Shown piece by piece: positions 25,482 to 32,378 of a stretch of 34,727 nucleotides of DNA. Position 1 is the stretch's first letter; every line of letters begins with the position of its first letter. The translations under genes were made by a program, and so were the position numbers. Source of the DNA: Desulfonatronovibrio magnus. Lineage in GTDB: Bacteria > Desulfobacterota > Desulfovibrionia > Desulfovibrionales > Desulfonatronovibrionaceae. The notes under the pieces are model-generated. The model did no database searches and was not told where the DNA came from. It saw only the letters and a program-made list of their open reading frames with translations. The DNA lies in assembly GCF_000934755.1 (NCBI RefSeq), contig NZ_KN882178.1:1-34727 (forward strand). Reading direction: 5' to 3'.

Positions 25482-27788
25482 TTAATTGTCAAGCCCCATT
25501 TCCAGAACTTTGTGCAGTTCTTGAAGCAGTTTTTTGAATGAATAAGGCTTTTGTAAGTACCCCATAATTTTTCCTTCAGTTTCAGGCAGTTTGTCGGCGG
25601 GGTTGTATCCGCTTGATATTATGACTTTTACCCTGGGGTCGATCTCGCACAATTTTTGATATGCTTCAATTCCATTCATTCTTGGCATGGTCAGGTCAAG
25701 AATGACGCACGATATTTTGCCAGAATTCTGCCTGTAGGTGTCAATGGCTTCGATTCCATCAGCTGCAAATAAAACATCAAACCCGGCATCCTGAAGAAGT
25801 TCTCCGCAAACATCTCGAATAAGCTCTTCATCATCAACAATCAGAATTGCGCCCAGTCTGTTAAGGTCGATCTGCGGGTTTTGTTTTTGTTCTTTTATTT
25901 TTTGATTTTCAGAGTGCTCCATCCATGCTGGAAAAAGTACTCTGATCATAGTTCCTTTTCCAGGTATACTCTTGACATCTATTGCTCCATTGTGCCTGTG
26001 AATGGCAGTCATAACAGCAGACATACCAAGGCCTCTGCCAATCGTTCTTGTGGAAAAGAAAGGATCAAAAATCCTTATCAGGGTACTTTCTTCCATGCCT
26101 TCACCTGAATCTTCTATTTCTAAGTAGGTGTAATGTCCTTCACTGACATGGTCTGTGGAATTCATCTTAGCCAGGTCCAGTTGGCTGAAATACTTGTGAC
26201 CGGTCCTGATATGAATTGTGCTTTGGGGGGTATTGATGGCTTCGCAGGAGTTGCCCACCATGGCTTTGACAGCCTGAACAATCAAGTCGTGATCGGCCAT
26301 GATCAGGGGAAGGGAGTTCTGCATGTCAAATTTCAGCCTGCAAAATGAATTACAGAGCAAGGCAAGCTTGTCTTTGTGATCTTCAATGATGTGGTTCAAA
26401 TTTACAAGCTCTGGTCTGAACTTGCCTCTTCCTGAATAACTCAGCATTTTCCTGGTAAGGTTTGCTGCCCTGCTTATAGCCTTTCGGGCAGAGTTGATTT
26501 TTTTGTCAGCCTGATCAGGAAGGTCTTTAATGTGCGAAAAGCCCTCAAGGCTGTGCTGAATTATCTGCAAAAGATTACTGAATTCATGGGCGATGCTGCC
26601 GGTAATGGTTTCAAGCTGTCTTTGCTGTTTGGTTATGGCTGCTTTTTCTTCCAATTCTTTTTGTTTGTTTTGGGCTGTTTTGCGTTTATTGATATCTCTG
26701 ATGCTGGCAAAAAATCTTTCTTCAGCTCCAATATATCCCTTTCTTAAGTTGACCTCCACCCAGAATTTTTTTCCGTCTTTTTTTCTGGCCTGCCACTCAA
26801 TGGTGGCAGTCTTGTTCTGTCTGACGTAATCCAGGAGGTCTAAGAGTATTTCTTTAGTGTATGGATCCTCGCCAGAGCTGAGATGGGAGATATCGAGCTT
26901 AAGCACTTCATCTCTGGTATACCCGTACATATCACAGACCCGCTGATTGGCCTCAATAATTTTCAAGGTGTGACCTTCATGAACAATTATTCCGTCATTG
27001 ACCATTTCCAGAATGGTCTTGCTGTACTCCAGGCTCTGGGCCAGATCCTTTTGGGCTTGTTCAGCTCGGGAGTATTCGGCTTCAATTTGGGTAACTGCAG
27101 TTGAGAGCTCACATGTTTTTTCCAAAACATAATTTTCTAAATGTTGCTGATTTGCGATCAAGGACTTCTCCAATGCTTTGCTTTCAGTTATGTCTAAGAT
27201 GATTCCAAAAACTTGAGATACTTTTCCGGTTTCGCTGGTTAAAAAATCAATATGCTGGATGCCAAGGCGCCTCAAACCTTTTTTTGTTGAGAAATAAAAC
27301 TCCAGCCCTGGACTGGATTTGCCTTTCAAGGCATTGTTGAGCTGTTTGGTGAATGGTTCCTTATGATCGCTAGATAACCTTGATTTCAAAGCCTGGAGAT
27401 TTGGAGTAATTGATGATGGCTCATAACCCATAATCTTGAAAAGCCCCAAAGACCAGAAGTGTTGATTACTCAAGATATCTGTCATCCATAGACCCTTGCC
27501 TGTGATGTATTTGGACCAGTCAAGAGGTGTTATGATGCTCAGTGGACCGACATCATCTTCGGATAAGCCCTGGTCATTACAAGATGAGAAAAGAAACAGT
27601 GCTGCTGGCTCAATCTCAAGGGCACTGCAGATTGAGGTAATGATTTTAAATGAGGGGAATGAAATGCCTCTTTCAATTCTCCCGAGATACTGAAGGGAAA
27701 CACCTGCCTTATCAGCAAGTTCAACCTGAGTCATACCTTTAATTAAACGCAGCAGTTTGAGGCGTTTGCCAAAGTCTATAGTCTGCAT
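25482..27788 (-). CDS. Hybrid histidine kinase with N-terminal XRE DNA-binding domain
   Basis: A 768-residue cytoplasmic protein. Order: XRE/Cro helix-turn-helix 7-62 (GMTQVELADKAGVSLQYLGR and RIERGISFPS); PAS about 88-203; coiled coil about 205-255; PAS about 253-368; NtrB-like dimerisation segment with His401 (SIAHEFSNLLQII); HATPase_c with Asn513, DSGEGM (560-565) and GRGLGM (584-589); receiver domain about 645-765 with Asp698 and Lys747. Joining a DNA-binding head to a complete sensor, kinase and receiver would let one protein sense a signal, phosphorylate itself and act on DNA. GGAGGC lies four bases before the ATG. The perfect palindrome at 27844-27866, at the predicted promoter, is a candidate binding site for its own HTH. 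No separate response regulator adjoins it. XRE domains usually dimerise, as does the kinase core. Confidence 0.93.
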   Translation of the reverse strand: MQTIDFGKRLKLLRLIKGMTQVELADKAGVSLQYLGRIERGISFPSFKIITSICSALEIEPAALFLFSSCNDQGLSEDDVGPLSIITPLDWSKYITGKGLWMTDILSNQHFWSLGLFKIMGYEPSSITPNLQALKSRLSSDHKEPFTKQLNNALKGKSSPGLEFYFSTKKGLRRLGIQHIDFLTSETGKVSQVFGIILDITESKALEKSLIANQQHLENYVLEKTCELSTAVTQIEAEYSRAEQAQKDLAQSLEYSKTILEMVNDGIIVHEGHTLKIIEANQRVCDMYGYTRDEVLKLDISHLSSGEDPYTKEILLDLLDYVRQNKTATIEWQARKKDGKKFWVEVNLRKGYIGAEERFFASIRDINKRKTAQNKQKELEEKAAITKQQRQLETITGSIAHEFSNLLQIIQHSLEGFSHIKDLPDQADKKINSARKAISRAANLTRKMLSYSGRGKFRPELVNLNHIIEDHKDKLALLCNSFCRLKFDMQNSLPLIMADHDLIVQAVKAMVGNSCEAINTPQSTIHIRTGHKYFSQLDLAKMNSTDHVSEGHYTYLEIEDSGEGMEESTLIRIFDPFFSTRTIGRGLGMSAVMTAIHRHNGAIDVKSIPGKGTMIRVLFPAWMEHSENQKIKEQKQNPQIDLNRLGAILIVDDEELIRDVCGELLQDAGFDVLFAADGIEAIDTYRQNSGKISCVILDLTMPRMNGIEAYQKLCEIDPRVKVIISSGYNPADKLPETEGKIMGYLQKPYSFKKLLQELHKVLEMGLDN

Positions 27789-27843
27789 TTTGCCTCCGAT
27801 TCAGAGTTTTTTATTGCCTGATTAGCATAAATCGGAACTGTTG

Positions 27844-27866
27844 AAAACAACCGTAAAGGTTGTTTT
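27844..27866. promoter_or_regulatory. Perfect palindrome upstream of the XRE-kinase gene
   Basis: AAAACAACC-GTAAA-GGTTGTTTT, nine perfect pairs over 23 bp, 56-78 bp upstream of the ATG. On the minus strand a possible -10 box TATGCT lies about 15-18 bp beyond it, so the palindrome covers the -35 position. This fits an autoregulatory operator for the HTH domain. Confidence 0.6.
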
Positions 27867-27920: not shown

Positions 27921-28046
27921 GGTCGGAGGTCGGGGGGCAGAGGTCAGAGGTCAGCAGTCAGAAGTCTGCAGTCAGAAGTCAGGGGTCAGAGGTCGGAGGT
28001 CAGAGGTCGGAGGGCAGAGGTCGGGAGCTGGGGGTTAGAGGTTGGA
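27921..28046 (+). repeat. Heptamer tandem repeat, 18 units (GGTCAGA type)
   Basis: Eighteen consecutive 7-bp units in perfect register, mostly GGTCAGA or GGTCGGA with variants such as GGGCAGA, AGTCAGA, AGTCTGC and GGTTAGA. Strongly purine-rich on the plus strand. It lies between the pump stop codon and the kinase promoter. Confidence 0.95.
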
Positions 28047-28061
28047 GGAATGCACAATGTT

Positions 28062-31000
28062 TTAATGAACATCCTTTTTGGCAATAAAGGAATACATAAC
28101 AGGAACAAAGACCAGAGTTATGAGGGTGGAGCTGGCCAGACCGCCAATAATGGCCCGAGCCATGGGAGCCTGGGCCTCTCCGCCTTCGCCGACTCCCAGG
28201 GCCAGGGGCATCAGTCCGAAGATGGTGGTCAGGGCGGTCATGAGGATGGGGCGGAGCCTTCTTCTGCCCACTTCTTTGATGGCGGCAAACATTTCATATC
28301 CTTCTTCCTGGCGGACCATATTGGTTTGAGCCACCAGCAAAATGGCGTTATTAACCAGAATTCCTCCAAGCATTATACAACCGATGTAGGACTGGATATT
28401 AAAGGTTGTATTGGTAAGAAAAAGCATGAGGACCACACCGATAATGGCGAGAGGTACGGAAAACATGACAATGAAGGGGTCGCGCAATGATTCGTACAGA
28501 CAGGCCATGACCATGTAGACAAGGATAAGAGCCAGGAAAAGCCCCACGGCCAGTTCGTTGAAGGCTTTCTGCTGCTCTTCATAGTCACCGCCAAAAGTGA
28601 TATTGAAACCTCGCGGTATGGGGAGTATGGCAATCTGTTCCCTGATGTCAGCAATAACAGAGCTTAAATCACGATGGGTCAAATCCGTGGAAACTGTTAT
28701 GATCCTTTCCTGATCTTTACGCTCTATGTTTATGGGCCCTTTCCTGGATTCTACTTCCACCACATTGCGCAAAACTACAGGGACTGCGTTGTGTCCGGTG
28801 ATGGTTATGTCCAGCAGTTGGTTCAAAGGTAATAATTCAGCATCTTTGAGTTTGACCAGGATGGTGTATTCATCGCCCTGATCTCGGAACTGACCAGCAG
28901 AGGTTCCAGACAGCACTGTTTTGATGGCCTCGCCTACGGATGATACGCTAACCCCCATGCTCTCAGCCTTATTGCGGTCAACCAGGATGACCTGTTCAGG
29001 TACTCCACTTTCCCGGCTTATTCTGACGTCTCCCACACCATCTACCTGCTCTACCATTTTCTGGACTTCTTCAGCCAGGGCTGAAGCGGTTTCAAGATCA
29101 TATCCTCTTATTTCCACTTCCACTCGATCGCCGTCAGAAGTACCGATGCGCAGGATGAATAATCCCTGTCCAGCGCGGGTTCGTATGGTAGCACCGGGAA
29201 TGTTGTTCAGTTTGCGACGCAAATCTGCAGCAACTTCCTGACTGGATCTGGTTCGCTGGTTCTGTTCCACTAAGCTGAGCCGGACTTCTCCCAGGTGAGA
29301 ACCTGTGAAACGCCAGCCCACACCGCCCAGGAAAGATATGAGGCTGTCCAGTTCCGGAACTTCCCGGCGGATGATTTCTTCAACTTTTAGTGCTGTTTGA
29401 TCAAGCTGTTCTAATTTTGAGCCCACATCCATCTCAATATTGACCCTTACTTCACCCTCATCTGTCTGGGGCATCATTTCCGATCCAATAAATGGTATGA
29501 GCATAAGGCTGGATAACAATAAGAGGACTGACAGAAAAATGGTCATTATTCTGTGTTTTAGACAAAAATCCAGGGTTATTTTATATGATTCCTCCAAACT
29601 TTTAAAGAACGCGCATGAGAAAGCATATATTCTGTTGGACAGGCAAGGATCCTGACGTTTCCTGGAGCTGAAGTCAGTCAAGTATTTTGATGAAAGCATG
29701 GGAACCAGAGTCATGGCCACGGCAAGGGAACAAAGCAAAGAGAAGCCAACAACATAGGCAAGCTGGGAAAACATTATGCCAGCCATTCCACGTACAAAAA
29801 TCAGAGGTAAAAACACTGCAAGAGTGGTCAAAGTGCTTGCTGTAATGGCAGCACCAACTTCAGAGGCACCTTTCAAGGCAGCCTGGGGAGGGGGCATTCC
29901 CCCCTCTCTGTGACGATGGATGTTTTCCAGGACCACAATGGAGTTGTCCACAAGCATGCCAACTCCCAGCGCAAGTCCGCCAAGAGTCATAAGGTTTATG
30001 GTGAAACCCCCAAAATAAATTATTATAAAAGTAGCCACAATGGCGATGGGAATGGCCAGGCCTACAATGGCGGTTCCCCGGAAACTTCTGAGAAAAAAAA
30101 GCAGAACTATGATGGCGAAAAAACCACCATAGAACAGGGCGCTGGTAACGTTGGAAATGGAACGTTGTATATACTGTGAAGTGTCTATAATAGGGGTTAT
30201 TCTGAGTTGTGGGATGTCAGCATTAACCCGGTCAATGGCCGCCAGGACCTGTTGGGCAACTTCCACGGTATTGGTTCCTGACTGTTTGTTGACAGCAAGA
30301 CGGACCCCGGGTTCACCATTGACCCGGACAATCCTGGTTATTCTTTCCCAGGAATCCTCTATGTCAGCTATATCTCTGAGCCTGACGGGTGCATTGTCAC
30401 GGACGGCAACTATTGTGTTGCCAAGTTCCTGCAGATTGGTGAACTCTCCCAAAGTTCGAATGGATATTTCATAAGCACCGCTTTCCAGAATTCCTGCAGG
30501 AAGGTTGACATTGGCATCTCTTATCCTGCGAATTATTTCATCGAGAGGCAGCCCAAGAGCCTGGATGCGGCCTGGAATCAGATTGACATGGATTTCCCGG
30601 TCAAATCCTCCGCGAATATCAAGAGAAGCTACTCCGGGAATTCTTTCAACTCTGTATCTGACTTCATCCTCAATAAGCTGTTTGGTCTGAATGGGATCCA
30701 ACTGGCTGGATGCCCCAAGAATAAGAATTGGAAAGCTGGCCAGATCAAACTTGCGTAAAAAAGGCCGGTCAGCTTCCTCTGGCAGGCTTGAGACCACCCT
30801 GTCCAGACGATCTCGCAAATCATTTGCTGCTGCGTCGAGATCTGTTCCCCAGGCAAAACTGATGCGAATATCGCTAAGACCTTCAGTGGATCTGGAATAT
30901 ATCTGTTCTACCCCTGGTACAGCGCTGAACGCTCTCTCTAAAGGCCTGGAAATAAGGGTTTCAACTTCTTCAGGACCGGCATTGGAGTAGCTGGTGCGAA

Positions 31001-31142
31001 CGCTCAGGGTAGGGTAGGTGATGTCCGGCATTAGATCTATGGGTACTCTGGACAGGGAGATTGCGCCCAGAATCAGAACGATTAGCGTGGCCATAGTCAC
31101 AAAGACCGGACGTCCAACAGAGAATTTGATCAGATTTTTCAT
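28062..31142 (-). CDS. RND-family efflux transporter, inner-membrane pump
   Basis: A 1026-residue proton-driven pump of the hydrophobe/amphiphile (AcrB-like) RND group. The N-terminus (MKNLIKFSVGRPVFVTMATL), the first periplasmic loop (RVPIDLMPDITYPTLSVRTS, EEVETLISRPLE) and the two sets of membrane helices after about 340 and about 860 are characteristic. In the fourth helix GVGMLVDNSIVVLENI (393-408) carries one acidic residue, Asp399, followed by Asn400, instead of the Asp-Asp pair of AcrB. Single-Asp variants are common in this subgroup and should still couple to protons. It follows its membrane fusion protein after 42 bp in the usual order. No outer-membrane channel gene is adjacent, so a shared TolC-type channel is expected. 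No strong ribosome-binding site precedes the ATG. Confidence 0.95.
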   Translation of the reverse strand: MKNLIKFSVGRPVFVTMATLIVLILGAISLSRVPIDLMPDITYPTLSVRTSYSNAGPEEVETLISRPLERAFSAVPGVEQIYSRSTEGLSDIRISFAWGTDLDAAANDLRDRLDRVVSSLPEEADRPFLRKFDLASFPILILGASSQLDPIQTKQLIEDEVRYRVERIPGVASLDIRGGFDREIHVNLIPGRIQALGLPLDEIIRRIRDANVNLPAGILESGAYEISIRTLGEFTNLQELGNTIVAVRDNAPVRLRDIADIEDSWERITRIVRVNGEPGVRLAVNKQSGTNTVEVAQQVLAAIDRVNADIPQLRITPIIDTSQYIQRSISNVTSALFYGGFFAIIVLLFFLRSFRGTAIVGLAIPIAIVATFIIIYFGGFTINLMTLGGLALGVGMLVDNSIVVLENIHRHREGGMPPPQAALKGASEVGAAITASTLTTLAVFLPLIFVRGMAGIMFSQLAYVVGFSLLCSLAVAMTLVPMLSSKYLTDFSSRKRQDPCLSNRIYAFSCAFFKSLEESYKITLDFCLKHRIMTIFLSVLLLLSSLMLIPFIGSEMMPQTDEGEVRVNIEMDVGSKLEQLDQTALKVEEIIRREVPELDSLISFLGGVGWRFTGSHLGEVRLSLVEQNQRTRSSQEVAADLRRKLNNIPGATIRTRAGQGLFILRIGTSDGDRVEVEIRGYDLETASALAEEVQKMVEQVDGVGDVRISRESGVPEQVILVDRNKAESMGVSVSSVGEAIKTVLSGTSAGQFRDQGDEYTILVKLKDAELLPLNQLLDITITGHNAVPVVLRNVVEVESRKGPINIERKDQERIITVSTDLTHRDLSSVIADIREQIAILPIPRGFNITFGGDYEEQQKAFNELAVGLFLALILVYMVMACLYESLRDPFIVMFSVPLAIIGVVLMLFLTNTTFNIQSYIGCIMLGGILVNNAILLVAQTNMVRQEEGYEMFAAIKEVGRRRLRPILMTALTTIFGLMPLALGVGEGGEAQAPMARAIIGGLASSTLITLVFVPVMYSFIAKKDVH

Positions 31143-31184
31143 AAGAGTTTAGCAAGCAGAGCAAGGATTGACAATAACTCCATG

Positions 31185-32378
31185 CTAATTTTTTTGTGAT
31201 GAATTGCCGGCATTGTCTACTGAGGCCAGGCCGGGAATGATAATATTCATATTATCTTCAAGAAGGTGATGTCCCAGAGTCACAACATAGCCCTCAAGTT
31301 CGGGCTCACGAATCTCTACAAGGTTACGGTCGGTAAGACCGGTTGTAACCGGGGTAAACCGGGCCCGCATATTATCAGTGTCCGCCAGAAATACGCCCTG
31401 TATATTATCGCGCCTTGCAAGGGCTTCCTGAGGAACCGTCAACACATCTTCACGTCTGTGGAATTCAATGCGCACTCTGGAAAACATACCCGGTGCCAGT
31501 ATATTGTCCGGATTGGGAACAAGAACTTCAACCCTTCCCTGTCTCGAAGACTCCTCCAGAACAGGTGAAAATCGTATAACTCTGCCGACATAATCTTTAT
31601 CTGGATAGGCGTGAGCATTGACAACTGCCTGCTGGCCAACCTGAATATAGGGAAAGTCTCGCTCGATTACATTGACCACGGCGAGAAGGCTTCGGGTGCA
31701 AACTATTGATACAATAGGCTCATTGGCCTGCAGCATGGCACCTTCACTGGCGAATCTTCTGCCTACCATGCGGGTGTCGGATTCTCCACTCCATGCAGCT
31801 CGAATACTGGTGTAGGCAAGCCTGACTTTTGCGGCTTCTAAGGCTGCCTGTTTCTGCCTTACCTGAGCCTGAGCCACTTTATGCCTGGCATTTCGCACAT
31901 CGTAACTGGCCTGGATTTGATCAAATTCAGACTGAGAAAGACTGCCTGACTCCACAAGTCGACGCGCCCTGTTGAGCTCTCTTTCTGCGACTTGCAACTC
32001 ACTGGTGCTTTCACCAAGTGCGGCCTGGGAAACCTCAAGGTCTGCCTGGGCGCCCTGCACCTGAAGCATGAACTCCTCACTGTCTAATTGAGCAATAAGA
32101 TCACCTCTGCTAACCACATCACCAATATTGACATAAAGATTTTCCAGCCTGCCTGAGACCTTGGGCGCGGCTATAAATTCCTTTTCAGGCACAAGGGTTC
32201 CTGTCAGTTCTGCCGTGTGCAGAAGAGTTTCTCTTGTTACCGGGGTTATGCTTACGGCTTGCGCTGGAGTTCTTTGTCTGTCCTGTTGAAGGGCAGTGGA
32301 AGACAGCTCGTTATATAACTTATGGGCAGTAAACCCGGCTAAGGCCAGGATAAAACAAATGGCAATAATTTTTTTCAT
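31185..32378 (-). CDS. RND efflux membrane fusion protein (HlyD family)
   Basis: A 397-residue periplasmic adaptor. A single N-terminal membrane anchor (IIAICFILALAGFTAHKL, 3-20) without a lipobox is followed by the barrel-sandwich half-motif (AAPKVSGRLENLYVNIGDVV, then GDLIAQLDSEEF), an alpha-helical hairpin of about 80 residues (QAALGESTSELQVAERELNR to QKQAALEAAKVRLAYTSIRA), and the beta-barrel with GQQAVVNAHAYP and LAPGMFSRVRIEF. It links the RND pump to an outer-membrane channel. It lies 42 bp upstream of the pump and is surely co-transcribed. The upstream 340 bp show no regulator gene. The substrate cannot be told. Confidence 0.94.
   Translation of the reverse strand: MKKIIAICFILALAGFTAHKLYNELSSTALQQDRQRTPAQAVSITPVTRETLLHTAELTGTLVPEKEFIAAPKVSGRLENLYVNIGDVVSRGDLIAQLDSEEFMLQVQGAQADLEVSQAALGESTSELQVAERELNRARRLVESGSLSQSEFDQIQASYDVRNARHKVAQAQVRQKQAALEAAKVRLAYTSIRAAWSGESDTRMVGRRFASEGAMLQANEPIVSIVCTRSLLAVVNVIERDFPYIQVGQQAVVNAHAYPDKDYVGRVIRFSPVLEESSRQGRVEVLVPNPDNILAPGMFSRVRIEFHRREDVLTVPQEALARRDNIQGVFLADTDNMRARFTPVTTGLTDRNLVEIREPELEGYVVTLGHHLLEDNMNIIIPGLASVDNAGNSSQKN

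What the first reader, a model, noticed from the sequence alone, without database searches (positions are those of the whole stretch)
25482..27866. One-protein phosphorelay carrying its own DNA-binding domain
An XRE helix-turn-helix, two PAS domains, a kinase core and a receiver in one soluble chain, with a perfect 23-bp palindrome overlapping the predicted promoter. Two-component systems normally separate sensing from DNA binding. Here the sensor may bind its own promoter, with phosphorylation altering the dimer. This is the strongest candidate for an unusual regulatory device in the window.
Basis: partly seen in the sequence, partly recalled or inferred. Interest (0 to 1): 0.6.

Follow-up and report, generated by a model that had tools for sequence, protein, structure and literature searches.

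The report
Self-regulating sensor kinase with DNA-binding domain
A bacterial sensor kinase carries its own DNA-binding domain, and an inverted repeat in its promoter region matches that domain across related bacteria, so it probably controls its own gene, although how its signalling chemistry affects DNA binding remains unknown.

Summary
ORF 25482-27788 (-) encodes a 768-aa XRE-HTH / PAS / PAS / CckA-like kinase / receiver protein; the first PAS is a weak match. The 'perfect 23-bp palindrome' is two perfect 9-bp arms around a 5-nt spacer.

The G001 ortholog (48% identity) has the same core repeat at the same place, with the same distance to a -10-like hexamer. That composite occurs without mismatch at only 4 places in 348 genomes of the order: 3 in this genome, 1 at that ortholog (the pattern was built from these 4).

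The family is large: 72 HTH+PAS proteins in 48 of 348 genomes. Recognition-helix types go with upstream repeats: QYL[GS]R with AACC-N5-GGTTGTT 5/5 (1/77 elsewhere); SLEHx[NS]K with CGTAA-N5-TTACG 17/19 (0/63); two more types 4/4 and 8/8, each from one genus. 34 of 72 members have none of the motifs. This is good comparative evidence that the HTH binds its own promoter, probably as an autorepressor.

The phosphorylation switch is not shown: 25 of 57 proteins have no HATPase_c match.

The parts
25482..27788 (-). gene for the 768-aa XRE-PAS-PAS-kinase-receiver protein
   Evidence: ORF; Pfam; ortholog 48% identical over the full length in G001
27603..27761 (-). XRE/Cro-CI helix-turn-helix, residues 10-62; recognition helix SLQYLGRIERG is residues 31-41
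   Evidence: Pfam HTH_3 E 2.4e-11; best solved-sequence matches 9sf2, C.BclI 2b5a, C.AhdI 1y7y; helix identical in G001; naming it the recognition helix is from family knowledge
27210..27458 (-). first PAS domain, residues 111-193 (weak)
   Evidence: PAS_3 E 1.8e-4, below curated cut-off; within the HTH+PAS unit found family-wide
27024..27176 (-). linker between the PAS domains, about residues 205-255 (LENYVLEKTCEL...)
   Evidence: conserved in the family consensus LExxVxxRTxxL; helix, coiled-coil and dimer role inferred, not computed
26688..26996 (-). second PAS domain, residues 265-367
   Evidence: Pfam PAS_9 E 4.7e-13
26433..26609 (-). HisKA region, residues 394-452, H401 at 26586-26588
   Evidence: weak Pfam HisKA; HEFSN box; alignment to 5idj
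25926..26294 (-). HATPase_c kinase domain, residues 499-621
   Evidence: Pfam E 9.5e-15
25515..25847 (-). C-terminal receiver, residues 648-758, putative phospho-Asp D698 at 25695-25697
   Evidence: Pfam E 3.1e-21; VILDLTMP
27844..27866 (.). inverted repeat / proposed operator AAAACAACC-N5-GGTTGTTTT (core AACC-N5-GGTT at 27849-27861)
   Evidence: core conserved at the ortholog and upstream of family members with similar helices
27845..27850 (-). -35-like TTGTTT inside the repeat (3 of 6 consensus bases)
   Evidence: sequence; TTGTT[TG] lies 15 nt before the -10-like hexamer at all 4 composite sites; promoter role inferred
27824..27829 (-). -10-like TATGCT (4 of 6 consensus bases)
   Evidence: TANGNT at the same distance after the repeat in C34, C115 and the G001 ortholog; promoter role inferred

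Best explanation
The protein is a soluble, probably dimeric sensor with two outputs. Its XRE head binds the inverted repeat that overlaps the -35 region of its own promoter and most likely represses it (autorepression). In this genome it may also act on two other promoters that carry the same repeat with the same -10 spacing: upstream of a multi-PAS histidine kinase gene (C34) and of a HIRAN-domain ORF followed by a helicase gene (C115). A signal sensed by the PAS domains changes the dimer, which changes DNA binding and kinase activity together. The CckA-like kinase and receiver form a second, phosphorylation-based output. Shown here: the domains, the conserved repeat, and its association with the recognition helix in part of the family. 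Inferred: binding itself, the promoter elements, the sign (repression), the PAS signal, dimer state, and any coupling between phosphorylation and DNA binding.
For: The G001 ortholog carries AACCTTAAAGGTTGTT at -72 relative to its HTH start, the window AACCTTTACGGTTGTT at -70. The composite AACCTTNANGGTTGTT-N16-TANGNT has 0-mismatch hits only in G000 (3) and G001 (1) among 348 genomes, none at 1 mismatch; the other 19 hits have 2 mismatches, against 22 for the reversed control (the pattern was built from the four sites, so what informs is the absence elsewhere). Helix-operator pairing over 82 proteins: QYL[GS]R 5/5 against 1/77 (family members only: 4/4 against 1/68); SLEHx[NS]K 17/19 against 0/63, including 9/9 fetched after the motif was fixed; TPEHLxN 4/4 against 1/78; [ST]KQHLGQ 8/8 against 0/74. 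The QYL motif was fixed on G000 and G001 and then found at L084, L125, L101 and L188, always in the same orientation; chance per upstream region 1.2e-4. On a tree of the PAS part the QYL-type operator needs 4 changes, at least 2 forced by supported branches. In the 13 SLEHx[NS]K genes of genus g21 with the repeat, it directly follows a -35-like TTTACA, a repressor-like position.
Against: No binding or expression data exist. Helix classes and motifs were partly defined on the data they were tested on; the 4/4 and 8/8 classes come from one genus each, and the nine held-out proteins are from the genus that helped define the motif. 34 of 72 family members have none of the five motifs. Counter-examples: L093 (SLEHVSK) and L130 (SLEHLNK, a one-base departure) lack the exact CGTAA repeat; L085 (TEEYVSK) has the GAA.T-N4-GTTC motif without that helix. 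By plain similarity to the window's 18-base site, L174 (SLEHCNK) scores as high (14) as L084 and L101. The five-row QYL-operator group is not clearly clustered on the PAS tree (42 of 500 shuffles as low). The hexamers match consensus poorly. Only one close ortholog is known. Repression rather than activation is a guess from position.
Confidence: 0.7

Rival explanations
1. Single-chain phosphorelay transcription factor: autophosphorylation at H401 and transfer to D698 directly switch DNA binding of the N-terminal HTH.
For: Kinase and receiver motifs are present and kept in the 48%-identical ortholog. Of the 8 family members with the QYL- or SVKH-type operator, 5 have a fused kinase and 2 a kinase in the next or overlapping ORF; for L125 none was found, but it lies near a contig end.
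Against: The HTH lies at the far end of the chain with two PAS domains between. 25 of 57 family proteins have no HATPase_c match at E 0.001 (2 of the 57 are cut by the end of the held stretch). G025 has an SVKH-type operator before an HTH-PAS gene whose kinase is a separate neighbouring gene. The ortholog's G2 box reads GRGLD.
Confidence: 0.3
2. Kinase and receiver signal to separate Hpt or response-regulator partners as in CckA pathways (recalled), and the HTH only keeps the protein's own level constant.
For: The kinase-receiver half is CckA-like (NCBIfam E 9e-64 but below cut-off; 5idj); 6 of 57 family members carry an Hpt domain, the window's does not.
Against: No other kinase or receiver ORF was seen by motif search in the 19 kb around it or in 14 kb around the G001 ortholog, but Hpt genes were not searched for and partners may lie elsewhere. 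Two other promoters in the genome carry the same operator composite, which suggests more than self-levelling.
Confidence: 0.35
3. The repeat is a transcription terminator or a generic promoter element, or is bound by another XRE protein.
For: On the + strand a T-rich tract follows the hairpin and the scan lists it as terminator-like; the genome has other XRE proteins.
Against: The gene before the repeat on the + strand side is on the minus strand, so no + strand gene ends just before it; the G001 copy has a partly broken left arm but keeps the AACC-N5-GGTT core; the repeat's sequence changes with the recognition helix of the gene downstream in part of the family.
Confidence: 0.12

Closest known systems
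Hybrid two-component systems (HTCS) of Bacteroides
   Same: Histidine kinase, receiver and DNA-binding domain in one chain; direct control of transcription without a separate regulator (PMC11253607, outline and abstract).
   Different: HTCSs contain a membrane sensor kinase and a response-regulator part made of receiver and DNA-binding domain (abstract); here the DNA-binding domain is an XRE HTH at the N-terminus next to PAS, and no clear membrane segment was seen.
HTH-PAS one-component regulators, e.g. FG214 of Fimbriimonas ginsengisoli
   Same: N-terminal HTH followed by PAS; the PAS state is linked to dimerisation and the HTH (PMC13060918, passages).
   Different: FG214 is described as HTH plus PAS only; its HTH was not compared with this one here.
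CckA-type hybrid histidine kinases
   Same: Kinase core and C-terminal receiver; best solved match 5idj.
   Different: CckA has no HTH and is membrane-anchored (recalled); NCBIfam CckA model NF046020 matches residues 375-763 only and far below its cut-off.
XRE/Cro-CI regulators and restriction-modification C proteins (C.BclI, C.AhdI)
   Same: HTH sequence; autogenous control through short inverted repeats over the promoter (recalled).
   Different: The matched chains are small (74-77 residues) and have no sensor or kinase.

Membership tests
Hybrid histidine kinase | His box, ATP-binding domain and receiver with Asp in one chain | tested here: met
   HisKA itself below the Pfam cut-off; activity not tested
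XRE/HTH_3 DNA-binding regulator | HTH_3 domain above curated cut-off | tested here: met
   43.9 bits against 23
XRE/HTH_3 DNA-binding regulator | binds an inverted-repeat operator | not testable with these tools
   comparative support only
HTCS of Bacteroides | DNA-binding domain belongs to the response-regulator part with the receiver | tested here: not met
   HTH is at residues 10-62, receiver at 648-758, 10 residues follow it
CckA (NCBIfam NF046020) | match above curated score | tested here: not met
   215.7 bits against 1000, residues 375-763 only
HTH-PAS family described here | HTH+PAS unit matched over its length by the family profile | tested here: met
   E 6.6e-76 (the window was itself a row of the profile); 72 rows at E <= 1.0e-52, next row 1.5e-31
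HTH-PAS family described here | helix-matched inverted repeat upstream (found in part of the family) | tested here: met
   window and G001 carry AACC-N5-GGTTGTT; 38 of 72 members carry one of five motifs

The most novel reading that the evidence does not exclude
A family of single-chain sensors in one bacterial order whose recognition helix and own-promoter operator have co-diversified, and in which kinase/receiver phosphorylation and PAS sensing both set DNA binding, so that one protein closes sensor, phosphorelay, regulator and autogenous feedback loop. In this genome it would also control a second PAS histidine kinase gene in trans.
Probability: 0.3. Interest if true: 0.75.

Novelty: new variant of a known kind. 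Interest (0 to 1): 0.52.

Why it matters
Textbook two-component systems separate sensing from DNA binding. This family carries an XRE reader and, in many members, a kinase behind one PAS unit, so it offers natural fused, split and apparently kinase-less versions for testing how phosphorylation couples to DNA binding. The helix-operator pairs also give a small, testable recognition code for XRE domains, with predicted binding sites that can be swapped.

Tried and rejected
Chance palindrome: disfavoured after the ortholog and family comparisons. Terminator: disfavoured because no + strand gene ends before it and the hairpin is not fully kept in G001. Orthologs by the search for related loci in genome contigs: 2 loci, matching about residues 5-59 only (41% and 36%), not used. 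Plasmid search: 6 records, none covering 80% of the query, 5 matching the PAS part and 1 the HTH part; not used. Sample of the phylum (395 genomes drawn evenly, E <= 1e-12): the 6 genomes with a match besides the own one match only from query residue 75 onward, i.e. PAS without the HTH. RND pump linkage: pump genes lie beside the gene in both G000 and G001, in different order and strand; among the 27 loci no other RND or MFP match appeared; treated as weak. Own-genome paralogs (L051, L052, L053) carry none of the motifs.

Literature: no paper on an XRE-PAS-kinase protein stood in the listings (no paper), nor of 49 and 66, which asked for related matters (held open-access library only, top rows listed). 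Seen beyond the listing: PMC1592074, PMC13060918, PMC1183210 and PMC11784639 by passages, PMC11253607 by outline and abstract.

Helix types without an assigned operator include SLRQISR, SKRQLIR, TEQYVGM and SQHHLGC. An earlier class count misread five SLEHC helices; it was redone. The upstream alignments depended on guessed start codons (L091's was wrong); anchor on the HTH instead.

Full report
WHAT IS THERE. The minus strand of 25482-27788 encodes one 768-aa protein with an ATG start. Pfam finds an XRE-type HTH (residues 10-62), a PAS domain (265-367), HATPase_c (499-621) and a receiver (648-758); HisKA is below cut-off at 394-452. A first PAS at 111-193 is a sub-threshold PAS_3 match (E 1.8e-4). 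The kinase core aligns with the solved CckA-type kinase 5idj (E 2.6e-26); His box, G1- and G2-like boxes and the receiver Asp motif are present. The HTH's best solved-sequence matches are 9sf2 and the controller proteins C.BclI and C.AhdI. The repeat at 27844-27866 has two perfect 9-bp arms and a 5-nt spacer; 3 of 3000 Markov copies of the intergenic region hold as good a repeat.

THE ORTHOLOG TEST. Among the 18 genomes of the family, own included, one other (G001, same genus) has a close ortholog: 48% identity over the whole chain, 768 aa from the matching start, identical recognition helix SLQYLGRIERG. Its upstream region reads AACCTTAAAGGTTGTT where the window has AACCTTTACGGTTGTT; the 18-base site matches in 16 bases, reached by 1 of 20,000 Markov copies. 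Both continue, 16 nt after GGTTGTT, with TATGCT. Two further copies in the own genome (C34:7405, one mismatch over both 9-bp arms; C115:141456, two mismatches; a third two-mismatch place, C3:46601, lacks the full core) show the same 16-nt spacing to TATGGT and TAAGCT. I built the composite AACCTTNANGGTTGTT-N16-TANGNT from these four and searched 348 genomes of the order: exact hits are those four only, no hit has one mismatch, and 19 hits have two, against 22 hits of the reversed-pattern control. A looser pattern, CAACCTNTNNGGTTGTT, has 8 exact hits in the 348 genomes against 2 of the control: 3 lie directly upstream of family members (window, G033, G245), one is C34, one (G026) lies in what reads as kinase coding sequence, and 3 (G206, G223, G286) I did not examine. 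With the short core ACAACC-N5-GGTTGT and up to one mismatch, the own genome has no excess over control (15 places each, 3 of them exact).

THE FAMILY. The HTH+PAS front is found as 72 proteins in 48 of 348 genomes of the order (rows with E <= 1.0e-52, counted; 8 candidates were scored per genome, so this is a lower bound; the next row is at 1.5e-31, and many of the rows below match only the PAS part). In a sample of 395 genomes drawn evenly from the phylum, the 6 genomes other than the own with a match at E <= 1e-12 match only the PAS part. Organism names are withheld; from memory the content looks like Desulfovibrionales, which no call tests. Of 57 proteins examined, HTH_3 is found in 57, HATPase_c in 32, HisKA in 30, Response_reg in 21, Hpt in 6 and GGDEF in 2 (two of the 57 run off the held stretch). 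So the HTH-PAS unit is constant and the C-terminal part varies. In G025 an HTH-PAS protein (754 aa) and a HisKA/HATPase kinase (514 aa) are neighbouring genes on the same strand; in G045 the kinase is an overlapping next ORF, which could also be a frameshift.

HELIX AND OPERATOR GO TOGETHER. Aligning upstream regions of other ortholog groups showed conserved inverted repeats of different sequence in several of them. I then scored 82 proteins (72 family members and 10 more distant HTH proteins) with the region of up to 350 bp before the HTH. Helix QYL[GS]R: AACC-N5-GGTTGTT in 5 of 5, against 1 of 77 others, and that one (L101) has the similar helix SVKHIGR; one of the five (L188) is a distant protein, so within the family it is 4 of 4 against 1 of 68. 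Helix SVKH.GR: a form with a degenerate left half, 4 of 5 (L098, with about 156 bp upstream held, lacks it), and in 3 of 77 others, all of the QYL class. Helix SLEHx[NS]K: CGTAA-N5-TTACG in 17 of 19, against 0 of 63; the nine proteins fetched after the motif was fixed all carry it, though they are from a genus that helped define it. Helix TPEHLxN: GAA.T-N4-GTTC in 4 of 4 (two genomes of one genus), against 1 of 78. Helix [ST]KQHLGQ: CAAG-N7/8-TTGT in 8 of 8 (one genus), against 0 of 74. Per-region chance rates are 1.2e-4 (QYL), 4e-5 (SLEH), 6.7e-3 and 1.25e-2. The Fisher values printed (1e-4 to 1e-15) ignore relatedness and the post-hoc choice of motifs. On a tree of the PAS part the QYL-type operator (5 rows) needs four changes, at least two of them forced by supported branches; its clustering is not beyond shuffled labels (42 of 500 as low), and all motif groups together need 11 changes against 34.7 on shuffling. 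This fits either old retention or repeated gain of the QYL-type operator rather than copying within one clade. Against the pattern: L093 and L130 lack the exact SLEH repeat, L085 has a TPEH-type repeat without that helix, L174 resembles the window's 18-base site as well as L084 and L101 do (14 of 18), and 34 of 72 have none of the five motifs.

HOW IT PROBABLY WORKS. The repeat holds a -35-like TTGTTT 15 nt before TATGCT, so a dimer on it would cover the -35 region; these hexamers are poor consensus matches and the scan does not list them. In the 13 SLEHx[NS]K genes of genus g21 with the repeat it sits directly behind TTTACA. Both arrangements suit a repressor; this is inference. The conserved unit is HTH plus PAS, so PAS sensing is the likeliest switch for DNA binding.

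COMPARISON. The nearest working analogues are Bacteroides HTCSs (PMC11253607, abstract), which join kinase, receiver and DNA-binding domain in a different order, and HTH-PAS one-component regulators such as FG214 (PMC13060918, passages). The 2006 survey of the signalling helix notes that this helix at low frequency connects signalling domains to HTH domains (PMC1592074, passages). I found no paper on XRE-PAS-kinase proteins in the listings, which cover an open-access library only.

VERDICT. Self-regulation is well supported by comparison though not tested; the phosphorylation switch is not supported or refuted. It is a new variant of a known kind.

Noticed in passing
window 27921-28022: Degenerate tandem array of GGTCAGA, 14.6 copies at 77% match, between the RND pump gene and this gene.
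   Followed up: no
window 28062-32378; L048 7481-13284: RND efflux genes (ACR_tran permease and adaptor) lie next to the gene in both G000 and near its G001 ortholog, in different order and strand.
   Followed up: partly
L005 1384-4428 (C34): A multi-PAS histidine kinase ORF with the same operator and -10 spacing upstream; a 98-aa ORF without a Pfam match overlaps its start, so a frameshift or a small leader gene is possible.
   Followed up: partly
L006 5457-9809 (C115): Same operator about 170 nt upstream of a HIRAN-domain ORF, followed by a large AAA helicase-like ORF with a REase_MTES_1575-type end; possibly defence or repair genes.
   Followed up: partly
L202 5528-9393; L201 7240-10795: Split versions of the fusion: HTH-PAS gene with a PAS-kinase gene directly downstream (G025) or an overlapping kinase ORF (G045).
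   Followed up: partly
L209 6129-13603 (G281); same arrangement in G282 by the coordinates: Two HTH-PAS family genes with the same helix type lie close together on opposite strands, each with a GAA.T-N4-GTTC repeat upstream.
   Followed up: no
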